Part shown: in pieces, positions 7,931-10,956 of the stretch
How positions within the stretch are numbered: position 1 is the stretch's first letter
Layout of the letters: each line of letters starts with the position of its first letter
DNA from: an archaeon
Lineage (GTDB): Archaea; Hydrothermarchaeota; Hydrothermarchaeia; JALTZZ01; JALUTC01
Assembly (NCBI GenBank): GCA_027051265.1
Contig: JALTZH010000174.1
Coordinates: 1-11,601, forward strand
DNA length: 11,601 nt
Direction of reading: 5' to 3'
The notes under the pieces: model-generated
Database searches by the model: none
Told to the model about the DNA's origin: nothing
The model's input: only the letters and a program-made list of their open reading frames with translations
Translations under genes and position numbers: made by a program

Positions 7931-8206
7931 ATGAAAGAATTGGTTAAAAATATTATAGAAAAATATAATCGTTATAGATATCCAGAAATAGAAGCAAATT
8001 TACTAAAAATGAACGAAAAAGAAATCGTTGTGGAATTTTTTGGCTATCTTTGCAAAAGTTGTGGACTTTATGACCATTTTGAAGATCTAAAGTATATGTT
8101 GGAAGAGGAAGGAATAAAATCTGAAATTAATGAAATAAAGGATATTGTCGTTGAAGAAAATGGTAAAATAAATATTATATATATAGTAAAGTATAAAATA
8201 TTATGA
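7931..8206 (+). CDS. Small CxxC protein of unknown function
   Basis: A 91-residue acidic protein. An N-terminal helix (ELVKNIIEKYNRYRYPE) is followed by strands and the motif LC41-KSC44-GLYDHFEDL, then another helix and a strand. The alternating helix-strand pattern with CxxC between a strand and a helix recalls thioredoxin-like or ferredoxin-like small proteins, so a redox or metal-binding role is possible. I do not recognise a named family. It begins 22 bases after the CoA-binding gene without a ribosome binding site, and its stop overlaps the queA start by 4 bases, so the two are coupled. Confidence 0.75.
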   Translation: MKELVKNIIEKYNRYRYPEIEANLLKMNEKEIVVEFFGYLCKSCGLYDHFEDLKYMLEEEGIKSEINEIKDIVVEENGKINIIYIVKYKIL

Positions 8207-9192
8207 TAATTAATCTCGGAGTAAAAATTCCTAAAGAACTAATAGCTCAAGAACCAATAGGAAGAGGAAAATCGAGATTAATGGTTATATCTGAGAATAA
8301 AATATATCATAAAAAATTTTCAGAGATTGTGGAGTTTTTGGAGGATGGTGATGTTGTTGTTGTAAACAATTCAAAAGTTATTCCTGCTAGACTTTTCGGT
8401 AGAAAAAAAACTGGTGGAAAAGTTGAAATTCTTCTAATAAAGAAGATCGAAGCCAATACTTGGAGATGTCTTGCTAAAGGAAAACTTAAAAGGAAAGAAA
8501 CGATGATAAAGATTAACGATATCGATGCCAAGCTCATAAGACATGATGGAGAATTCATAATAAAATTTGAGAAAGAAATAGACCTTAATAAGTACGGAAA
8601 AGCTCCATTGCCACCGTATATAAAAAAGGATGTTCCGTTAGAAAAATATCAGACAATCTTTGCAAAAGTTAACGGATCTCTAGCCTGTCCAACAGCAGGA
8701 TTGCATTTCAGTAAAGAAATAGTACAAAACTTGATAAAAAAAGGTGTTAAATTTGTTGAAATAACGTTACACGTTGGGTTGCCGACATTTAAACTTGCAA
8801 AATCTTTAGAAGAATATCAAAAAATATTCAAAGAGGAAGCAGAATATCTTAGAGTAACAAAAGAAGCGGCAGATATAATTAATAATGCAAATAAAAGAGG
8901 TAAACGTATCCTAGCTGTAGGTACTACCAGTGTGAAAGCTTTGGAAACATGTTCGAAAGATGGAAAAGTTTATCCGTATGAAGGATACTCTTCCTTATTT
9001 ATATATCCAGGATACAAATTTAAATCTCCTATAAATTCAATCCTAACAAATTTTCATCTACCGAACTCCAGTAACATATTGCTGGTTGCAGCATTCGCTG
9101 GAATAGATCTTATTAAGAAAGCATATGAAGAAGCTGTAAAGATGAGATATAGGTTTTATTCGTTTGGGGATGCGATGTTGATATTGAAATGA
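8203..9192 (+). CDS. queA: S-adenosylmethionine:tRNA ribosyltransferase-isomerase (QueA-like)
   Basis: A 329-residue QueA homologue. Known QueA enzymes transfer and isomerise the ribosyl part of S-adenosylmethionine onto 7-aminomethyl-7-deazaguanine at position 34 of tRNAs, giving epoxyqueuosine. Diagnostic segments run in order along the whole length: IAQEPIGRGKSRLMV, DVVVVNNSKVIPARLFG, GGKVEILLI, W-RCLAKG, GKAPLPPYIK, YQTIFAKVNGSLACPTAGLHF, VEITLHVGLPTF, GTTSVKALE (from G240), LFIYPGYKF, TNFHLPNSS (N283-F-H285) and YRFYSFGDAMLI. No gap or lost motif is visible, so it should be active. Length is slightly below typical bacterial enzymes. It is fused by ATGA overlaps to the small CxxC gene before it and to cobD after it. 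Codon use looks like that of its neighbours, so any transfer from bacteria would be old. Confidence 0.95.
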   Translation: MIINLGVKIPKELIAQEPIGRGKSRLMVISENKIYHKKFSEIVEFLEDGDVVVVNNSKVIPARLFGRKKTGGKVEILLIKKIEANTWRCLAKGKLKRKETMIKINDIDAKLIRHDGEFIIKFEKEIDLNKYGKAPLPPYIKKDVPLEKYQTIFAKVNGSLACPTAGLHFSKEIVQNLIKKGVKFVEITLHVGLPTFKLAKSLEEYQKIFKEEAEYLRVTKEAADIINNANKRGKRILAVGTTSVKALETCSKDGKVYPYEGYSSLFIYPGYKFKSPINSILTNFHLPNSSNILLVAAFAGIDLIKKAYEEAVKMRYRFYSFGDAMLILK

Positions 9193-10241
9193 GATTTCAT
9201 GGCGGAGGCTACTTAAAGGGGTTTCTAGATTTTAGTTCGAATATTAATCCGTTAGGAGTACCAAAACCTATAGAAGAAGAAATAAGAAGATGTTTAAAAG
9301 AAGAAATTTATAAGTATTATCCAGATAGTAATTATTTAAATATAAAGAGAGCGATTTCATACTTTTATGATGTTGAAGCAGAAAACATCGTTCAAACAAA
9401 TGGAGCTTCTGAGGCATTAAGTCTTATAGTTTTGCTTCTAAAACCAAAATACCTCGTGACGTTTGAACCTTCTTTTGGTGACTATGAATTACTTACAAAA
9501 GCATTAAACGTAAAGCTTATCAAGCATAGATTGAATTTAGTAAACGATAAATTTATCTTTGAGTTCGATTTTGTTAAAAATTTAAAGGAAGAAAAATTGG
9601 GTTTAATAATCATCGTAAATCCTAACAATCCTACTGGTTCATATGTGGATATCGATAAAATAATAGAACTAGCTCATGAAACAAGCAATATAATATTACT
9701 GGATGAAGCTTATTCAGAAGTTAGTGACTACGATACAATACTTAAGAAGCATGAGGATCTCCCGAAAAATGTTGTTGTCGTTAAAAGTTTTACAAAAGTT
9801 TTTTCCATTCCAGGTTTAAGAATTGGATTCATATATTCAAGGAATCGTGAACTCATAGAAAAAATCGATATTATAAGACCTATATGGAATTTGAATTCGA
9901 TAGTTGATTATAGTTTGAGTAAAGCTTTAACTTCGTATAAGAAGGATCTTTGGTCGTTTATTAATCATACAAAAAAATACATAAAAAATGAAAGAAAAAT
10001 GCTAAGCCATAAACTTTCAAATTATTTTCAAGTATATAAATCTTGTACAAATTTTATAATGTTAAAATCAAATTGCTCAGCAAAAGTTATCCATGATATG
10101 CTATTGAAAAGAAGGATAAAGATTCGAACCCTTAACAATTTTGGAAAAGAATATCTAAGAATCTCTGTAAGACGTAGGGAGGATAATGAAGTTCTTATCA
10201 AATCTATTAGAGAAATTTTCAGAAATATTAAAAGGCATTAG
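9189..10241 (+). CDS. cobD: L-threonine-O-3-phosphate decarboxylase (CobD-like aminotransferase fold)
   Basis: A 350-residue PLP enzyme of the fold-type I aminotransferase group. The N-terminal HGGGYLKG then DFSSNINPLG is the usual CobD signature and separates it from histidinol-phosphate aminotransferase (HisC). QTNGASEAL binds the PLP phosphate, NPNNPTGS is the conserved turn, LLDEAYSE carries the PLP aspartate, and SFTK203-VFSIPGLRIG contains the Schiff-base lysine. The C-terminus has YLRISVR with the carboxylate-binding arginine. It would make (R)-1-aminopropan-2-ol phosphate for the cobalamin side chain. HisC remains the alternative, but the start and the adjacent cobS favour CobD. It overlaps queA by 4 bases and cobS by 56 bases. 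Confidence 0.88.
   Translation: MRFHGGGYLKGFLDFSSNINPLGVPKPIEEEIRRCLKEEIYKYYPDSNYLNIKRAISYFYDVEAENIVQTNGASEALSLIVLLLKPKYLVTFEPSFGDYELLTKALNVKLIKHRLNLVNDKFIFEFDFVKNLKEEKLGLIIIVNPNNPTGSYVDIDKIIELAHETSNIILLDEAYSEVSDYDTILKKHEDLPKNVVVVKSFTKVFSIPGLRIGFIYSRNRELIEKIDIIRPIWNLNSIVDYSLSKALTSYKKDLWSFINHTKKYIKNERKMLSHKLSNYFQVYKSCTNFIMLKSNCSAKVIHDMLLKRRIKIRTLNNFGKEYLRISVRRREDNEVLIKSIREIFRNIKRH
10177..10182 (+). promoter_or_regulatory. Possible ribosome binding site for cobS inside cobD
   Basis: GGGAGG lies 3 bases before the ATG at 10186. It is the strongest purine-rich match to the 16S rRNA tail seen in the window, but the spacing is tighter than usual and it also encodes part of CobD. Confidence 0.4.
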
Positions 10242-10956
10242 AGCTTTGGTGTCATTTTTTACAATAATACCAACAGGTATTCATGATATTCACCTTGCAT
10301 CAAGATATTACTTTTTAATCCCATTGGTTGGATTTATAGAAGGAATTGTAATATACTCGTTTTCTTTCTTACCTTTGAATGAAGTTCTAAAAAAGTGTTT
10401 AATTTTTTTAACGTATTATATTATAACTGGCTTTTTACATATGGATGGTTTCATGGACTTTCTCGATGCCATTTTCTCAAAACGAAAGGGATTAGATGCT
10501 TTAAGGATAATGAAACAACAATGTAGAGGATCGATGTCAATAGTATTTACCGTAATTATAACGATAACAACTTTCGTACTAATATTTAATCTGAAGATTT
10601 ATGAAATATTAATACCAATCATTTTACTAGCAAAACAATCCGAGTTTATTTTAGCATATATTTCAAAACCTTCTGGATATAGTAGTTTGGGTAGATTATT
10701 CATATTGCAATCCAAGGATATTAACAAGTTAGTTCTCAATAATTTAATATTTTTTATATTAATAATTATAATTATATATATATTTAAATTGAATGAATAT
10801 CTTTTGTTATTACTTCTATCTGTTACAATTTTGATATCTTATTTTGTAAATCGTTTAGCAAACAATATATTAGGATTTGTAAACGGTGATGTGTTAGGAT
10901 TTTGTTTTGAATCTTCAAGATTTTGTTTACTCTTGATTTCATTCGCTTTTACTTAA
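10186..10956 (+). CDS. cobS: Adenosylcobinamide-GDP ribazoletransferase (cobalamin synthase)
   Basis: A 256-residue integral membrane protein that joins adenosylcobinamide-GDP to alpha-ribazole (phosphate) in the last steps of cobalamin synthesis. The metal-binding motif H85-MDGFMDFLDA is intact (D87, D91, D94), followed by a second conserved segment LRIMKQQCRGSM. Several hydrophobic spans are visible at about 41-60, 69-84, 120-150, 180-200 and 205-220. The N-terminus LKGIRALVSFFTIIPTG fits the family's usual start, but about 14 residues precede it, so translation may begin later than 10186. The only in-frame later candidates are TTG/GTG codons at about 10246-10251. With ATG at 10186 it overlaps cobD by 56 bases. 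It is followed after 6 bases by the CooC-like gene. Confidence 0.92.
   Translation: MKFLSNLLEKFSEILKGIRALVSFFTIIPTGIHDIHLASRYYFLIPLVGFIEGIVIYSFSFLPLNEVLKKCLIFLTYYIITGFLHMDGFMDFLDAIFSKRKGLDALRIMKQQCRGSMSIVFTVIITITTFVLIFNLKIYEILIPIILLAKQSEFILAYISKPSGYSSLGRLFILQSKDINKLVLNNLIFFILIIIIIYIFKLNEYLLLLLLSVTILISYFVNRLANNILGFVNGDVLGFCFESSRFCLLLISFAFT

What the first reader, a model, noticed from the sequence alone, without database searches (positions are those of the whole stretch)
8203..9192. An intact QueA in an archaeal genome context
QueA catalyses the step to epoxyqueuosine, a pathway I know only as bacterial; archaea normally make archaeosine at tRNA position 15 with other enzymes. Here a full-length QueA with all diagnostic motifs sits inside a tightly overlapping plus-strand gene set, next to an archaeal RNase P gene and an archaeal tRNA. 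Codon use looks native. Either this lineage makes queuosine, the enzyme uses another 7-deazaguanine-modified RNA, or it has been recruited for a new ribosyl-transfer reaction.
Basis: partly seen in the sequence, partly recalled or inferred. Interest (0 to 1): 0.6.

Follow-up and report, generated by a model that had tools for sequence, protein, structure and literature searches.

The report
Queuosine enzyme inherited by an archaeal class
The gene is an intact enzyme of the "bacterial" queuosine tRNA-modification pathway in a genuinely archaeal genome whose whole class carries the rest of the pathway beside its own archaeosine enzymes, so this archaeon very probably makes queuosine; that some archaea do so was already predicted in 2021 but has, as far as I could find, never been shown chemically.

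Summary
Window 8203-9192 is a full-length QueA in archaeal DNA, above NCBI's equivalog cut-offs. The home genome also encodes, in archaeal neighbourhoods, a bacterial-type tRNA-guanine(34) transglycosylase, QueF and QueH, plus archaeosine TGT. The last part of the queuosine pathway (preQ0 to Q) is therefore complete; QueG is absent.

QueA is in 21 of 23 genomes of this class; the two misses are only 62% complete. All 14 high-quality genomes carry QueA, bacterial-type TGT, archaeal TGT and QueH. Outside the class, 11 of 371 sampled archaea hit QueA, 7 of them full length. In the tree archaeal and bacterial QueA separate on one branch (88/83), and the class's TGT34 is one clade (98/94). This points to old, mainly vertical inheritance, not contamination or recent transfer.

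Best reading: ordinary queuosine synthesis at G34 of GUN tRNAs, alongside archaeosine at position 15. Not categorically new: a 2021 paper (PMC8204110) predicted the pathway in 34 archaeal genomes. New here are its class-wide conservation, the archaeal QueA group, and one gap: five high-quality genomes keep TGT34, QueA and QueH but have neither QueF nor the YhhQ transporter, so their preQ1 source is unknown. The lineage's name was not established.

The parts
8203..9192 (+). [quoted passage not shown]
   Evidence: same-genus orthologue under purifying selection
7931..8206 (+). 91-aa protein of unknown family, overlaps queA by 4 bp; the order orf91-queA-cobD-cobS is kept in the same-genus genome G001
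   Evidence: no Pfam or NCBIfam match; synteny
9189..10241 (+). CobD-like PLP enzyme (threonine-phosphate decarboxylase / HisC family), overlaps queA by 4 bp; neighbour, not a pathway member
   Evidence: TIGR01140 205.8 bits, below its cut-off 290.55
10186..10956 (+). CobS, cobalamin-5'-phosphate synthase; neighbour
   Evidence: PF02654
5813..6490 (-). Archaeal RNase P protein component 3 (p30): marks the contig as archaeal
   Evidence: PF01876, NF046111

Best explanation
The gene is the lineage's own queuosine-pathway enzyme. preQ0 (QueC and other early enzymes, shared with archaeosine) is reduced to preQ1 by QueF. The bacterial-type TGT exchanges preQ1 for G34 of GUN-anticodon tRNAs (Tyr, His, Asn, Asp). 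QueA adds the ribosyl part of S-adenosylmethionine and isomerises it to the epoxycyclopentanediol (epoxyqueuosine). QueH reduces that to queuosine. The archaeal TGT separately puts preQ0 at position 15 for archaeosine, so the same tRNAs would carry both modifications. Shown here: presence, integrity, archaeal setting, class-wide conservation and tree position of the genes. Inferred: the reactions, position 34, and Q in the tRNA.
For: QueA intact. Home genome G000: bacterial-type TGT 418 bits to TIGR00430 (cut-off 306.75), QueF 145.6 bits to TIGR03139 (cut-off 86.9), QueH 238.9 bits to PF02677, and archaeal TgtA 547.9 bits to TIGR00432. Their neighbours read as archaeal: thermosome and Alba-like genes (TGT), uS2, TruD and EF-2 (QueF), Nep1 (QueH) (Nep1 by profile). 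All 14 high-quality class genomes have QueA, TGT34, TgtA and QueH; QueG 0 of 23. Adjacent queA-tgt pairs in G003, G008, G010, G011, G012, G014, G016, G021; tgt-queA-queF together in G016 and G021. TGT34 keeps the catalytic Asp motifs, the Zn Cys cluster and V/I/L (not Gly) at the preQ1-selectivity position. QueA tree: archaea versus bacteria on one branch, 88/83; TGT34: class is one clade 98/94 within an archaeal group 100/97.
Against: No tRNA chemistry exists for this lineage. Only 6 of 23 genomes have QueF and 7 have a YhhQ/QPTR transporter; five high-quality genomes have neither, so the preQ1 supply there is unexplained. The four genes are scattered over four contigs in G000. In the free QueA tree the class is not a single clade, although one clade is not rejected (p-AU 0.315).
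Confidence: 0.85

Rival explanations
1. The enzymes make a variant end product: Q or epoxyQ further modified, or placed at another tRNA position or in another RNA.
For: Archaea have a second TGT in the same cell that acts at position 15; QueA has a lysine where the bacterial sequences aligned have an invariant arginine (window K245; 11 of 20 class members).
Against: TGT34 keeps bacterial active-site and selectivity motifs; QueH is kept throughout, which fits the usual Q end step; R/K245 also varies inside other archaeal QueAs.
Confidence: 0.08
2. QueA has been recruited to another ribosyl-transfer reaction or to 7-deazaguanine DNA modification.
For: G000 has an extra QueC plus a TGT-like 345-aa protein beside an Ogg-type glycosylase on contig C127, so other deazaguanine chemistry may exist in the cell.
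Against: That cluster holds no QueA; QueA travels with TGT34 and QueH across the class; invariant residues are kept.
Confidence: 0.04
3. Bacterial contamination of the bin, misassembly, or a very recent bacterial transfer.
For: Fragmented assembly in 257 contigs.
Against: QueA overlaps its neighbours on an archaeal contig, and orf91-queA-cobD-cobS recurs in G001; 21 of 23 class genomes carry it; archaeal QueAs branch apart from 37 bacterial ones.
Confidence: 0.02

Closest known systems
Bacterial queuosine pathway (QueF, TGT34, QueA, QueH; e.g. Thermotoga maritima, which rings for QueF, QueA and QueH in the control genomes)
   Same: Same four families, same motifs, same queA-tgt gene pair in many class members; QueH rather than QueG closes the pathway.
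   Different: Sits in archaea that also keep archaeosine TGT; genes dispersed in the window's own lineage; archaeal QueA and TGT34 branch apart from bacterial ones.
Queuosine pathway predicted in 34 archaeal genomes, 12 DPANN plus Methanosarcinales (PMC8204110)
   Same: QueA, QueH and bacterial-type Tgt in archaea, sometimes co-localised.
   Different: That paper reports scattered genomes; here the set is universal in the high-quality genomes of one class, with QueF in the window's genome. Whether any of the 34 genomes belongs to this class was not checked.
Archaeosine pathway (TgtA, ArcS)
   Same: Shares preQ0 and the TGT fold; TgtA is present in the same genomes.
   Different: Archaeosine needs neither QueA nor QueH, and acts at position 15.

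Membership tests
QueA (TIGR00113 / PF02547) | Full-length match above the curated equivalog cut-off | tested here: met
   328.6 vs 267.45 bits; NF001140 348.4 vs 324
QueA (TIGR00113 / PF02547) | Residues near-invariant in bacterial QueA retained | tested here: met
   37 of 41 columns in the window; 797 of 820 cells in the class; H207 and R245 are K in the window
QueA (TIGR00113 / PF02547) | SAM-dependent conversion of preQ1-tRNA to epoxyQ-tRNA | not testable with these tools
   needs an enzyme assay
Queuosine pathway | Bacterial-type TGT (guanosine-34) in the same genome | tested here: met
   TIGR00430 418 bits, cut-off 306.75; motifs
Queuosine pathway | Epoxyqueuosine reductase QueG or QueH | tested here: met
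   QueH 238.9 bits in G000, 14 of 14 high-quality class genomes; QueG absent
Queuosine pathway | preQ1 source: QueF, or a precursor transporter | tested here: met
   QueF in G000 above cut-off, with the stretch ELKSLKYY fitting the NADPH motif as recalled, E(S/L)K(S/A)hK(L/Y)(Y/F/W), so not QueF-L. Not met for five other high-quality class genomes, which have neither QueF nor YhhQ
Queuosine pathway | Q at position 34 of GUN tRNAs | not testable with these tools
   needs tRNA mass spectrometry or boronate-gel Northern blots
Archaeosine pathway | TgtA present in the same genome | tested here: met
   TIGR00432 547.9 bits, cut-off 350
Archaeosine pathway | ArcS, or another amidation enzyme | tested here: inconclusive
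   Only a contig-truncated ArcS-like piece in G000 (90.5 bits, below cut-off 440)

The most novel reading that the evidence does not exclude
A whole archaeal class carries both 7-deazaguanine hypermodifications, archaeosine at 15 and queuosine at 34, and has done so since its common ancestor. Members with TGT34, QueA and QueH but neither QueF nor YhhQ use an undiscovered preQ1 synthase or importer.
Probability: 0.4. Interest if true: 0.65.

Novelty: new member of a known kind. Interest (0 to 1): 0.48.

Why it matters
Textbook phylogeny gives queuosine to bacteria and eukaryotes and archaeosine to archaea. A class in which both machineries are fixed makes it directly testable whether archaeal wobble bases carry Q, how two TGTs share a precursor pool in one cell, and whether Q in archaea is old. 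The QueF-less members give a bounded set of genomes in which to look for a missing preQ1 enzyme or transporter.

Tried and rejected
The Altiarchaeum 16S probe SMARCH714 found no rRNA in class genomes. Size, contig number and GC of G003 resemble the Hydrothermarchaeota MAG BMS3Bbin15, and G004 has what reads by eye as a DsrAB pair beside queA (not profile-checked); this is suggestive only, and other genomes did not match, so no name is claimed. The named genome scan returned only three bacteria. The QueF/YhhQ alternation (6 and 7 of 23, never together) looks neat, but zero overlap has a chance of about 0.08 even ignoring relatedness (hand calculation), so it is not claimed as significant. Other paper searches for archaeal queuosine found nothing beyond PMC8204110.

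Full report
Observation. The ORF at 8203-9192 (+) encodes 329 aa and passes NCBI's equivalog cut-offs for QueA. Its closest solved relative by sequence is T. maritima QueA. It overlaps both neighbours by 4 bp. Of 41 columns that are nearly invariant in bacterial QueA the window keeps 37, and the class keeps 797 of 820 cells. The same-genus copy (G001) has 74% identity, with dN/dS near 0.08, dS being close to saturated. The contig is archaeal: RNase P p30, DUF530, type-4 UDG.

Home-genome pathway. G000 (1.46 Mb, 95% complete) has a bacterial-type TGT (418 bits to TIGR00430), QueF (145.6 bits to TIGR03139) and QueH (238.9 bits to PF02677), plus the archaeosine enzyme TgtA (547.9 bits to TIGR00432). 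QueC is also present. QueG is not found. Reading the flanking ORFs, TGT34 lies beside a thermosome subunit, QueF directly between uS2 and TruD upstream of EF-2 and EF-1alpha, and QueH beside the archaeal rRNA methyltransferase Nep1 (Nep1 by profile). The QueF sequence keeps ELKSLKYY, which fits the NADPH motif that I recall as separating QueF from the archaeosine enzyme QueF-L.

Distribution. QueA is in 21 of 23 genomes of the class; the two without are 62% complete. Among the 14 high-quality genomes QueA, TGT34, TgtA and QueH are in all 14 (QueA in G009 and TGT34 in G011 are cut by contig ends). Among 371 other archaea sampled, 11 have a QueA hit, 7 of them full length. All seven have a bacterial-type TGT (one with an internal stop), and six have QueH. 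In a bacterial sample 210 of 242 genomes have QueA.

Trees. With 61 rows, archaeal and bacterial QueA separate on one branch (88/83). In a quick 106-row tree one bacterial sequence (G585) falls among the archaea, so the split is moderate, not strong. The class is not one clade within the archaeal QueA group, but one clade is not rejected (p-AU 0.315). TGT34 gives a clearer picture: the class is one clade (98/94), its same-order members G000 and G002 pair, and family f3 is together; four other archaea are its nearest kin, while two small-genome archaea group with bacteria (only seven bacterial rows). Trees are unrooted, so the direction of transfer between domains is not inferred.

Gene neighbourhoods. 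queA and tgt are adjacent in many class members, and tgt-queA-queF lie together in G016 and G021. In G010 and G012 the pair sits beside what reads by eye as a Hel308-type helicase, and in G003 beside RadA- and RPA-like genes.

Gap. QueF is in G000, G001, G008, G014, G016 and G021; YhhQ in G002, G006, G007, G011, G013, G017 and G018; never both. G003, G004, G005, G009 and G012 are high quality and have neither. At least G003, G004 and G012 have QueC, G004 also a QueE-like gene beside it. The preQ1 source there is unknown; a divergent QueF below the search threshold is not excluded.

Literature. [quoted passage not shown] I found no paper showing Q in archaeal tRNA in the open library; subscription journals are not covered. 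YhhQ as a preQ0/preQ1 transporter and the salvage logic are from PMC5372724.

Conclusion. An ordinary enzyme in an unexpected but already predicted place, here fixed across an archaeal class. Queuosine synthesis is the likely function; the chemistry remains to be shown.

Noticed in passing
G000:C127 (L066:198-2621): Ogg-type DNA glycosylase, a second QueC (154.7 bits) and a 345-aa TGT-like protein in a tight row; may be a 7-deazaguanine DNA-modification set.
   Followed up: partly
G000:C25 (L064:1228-1989): Fusion of a nucleoside 2-deoxyribosyltransferase-like domain with a QueF-like domain whose NADPH motif is altered (EYESLKRY), beside a PP-loop/QueC-like gene.
   Followed up: partly
G003, G004, G005, G009, G012: High-quality genomes with TGT34, QueA and QueH but no QueF and no YhhQ.
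   Followed up: partly
window 7931-8206: 91-aa protein with no Pfam or NCBIfam family, kept directly upstream of queA in G001.
   Followed up: partly
window 8203-9192, residue 245 of QueA: Arginine invariant in the bacterial QueAs aligned is lysine in 11 of 20 class members and 2 of 7 other archaea.
   Followed up: partly
G000:C9 (L062:4907-7033): Genes that read by eye as heme-copper oxidase subunits II and I close to QueH, hinting at oxygen use; not profile-checked.
   Followed up: no
L222 (G038:C19:10431-11507): Bacterial-type TGT beside QueA with an internal TAA in a genome lacking QueH: possibly a decaying pathway.
   Followed up: no
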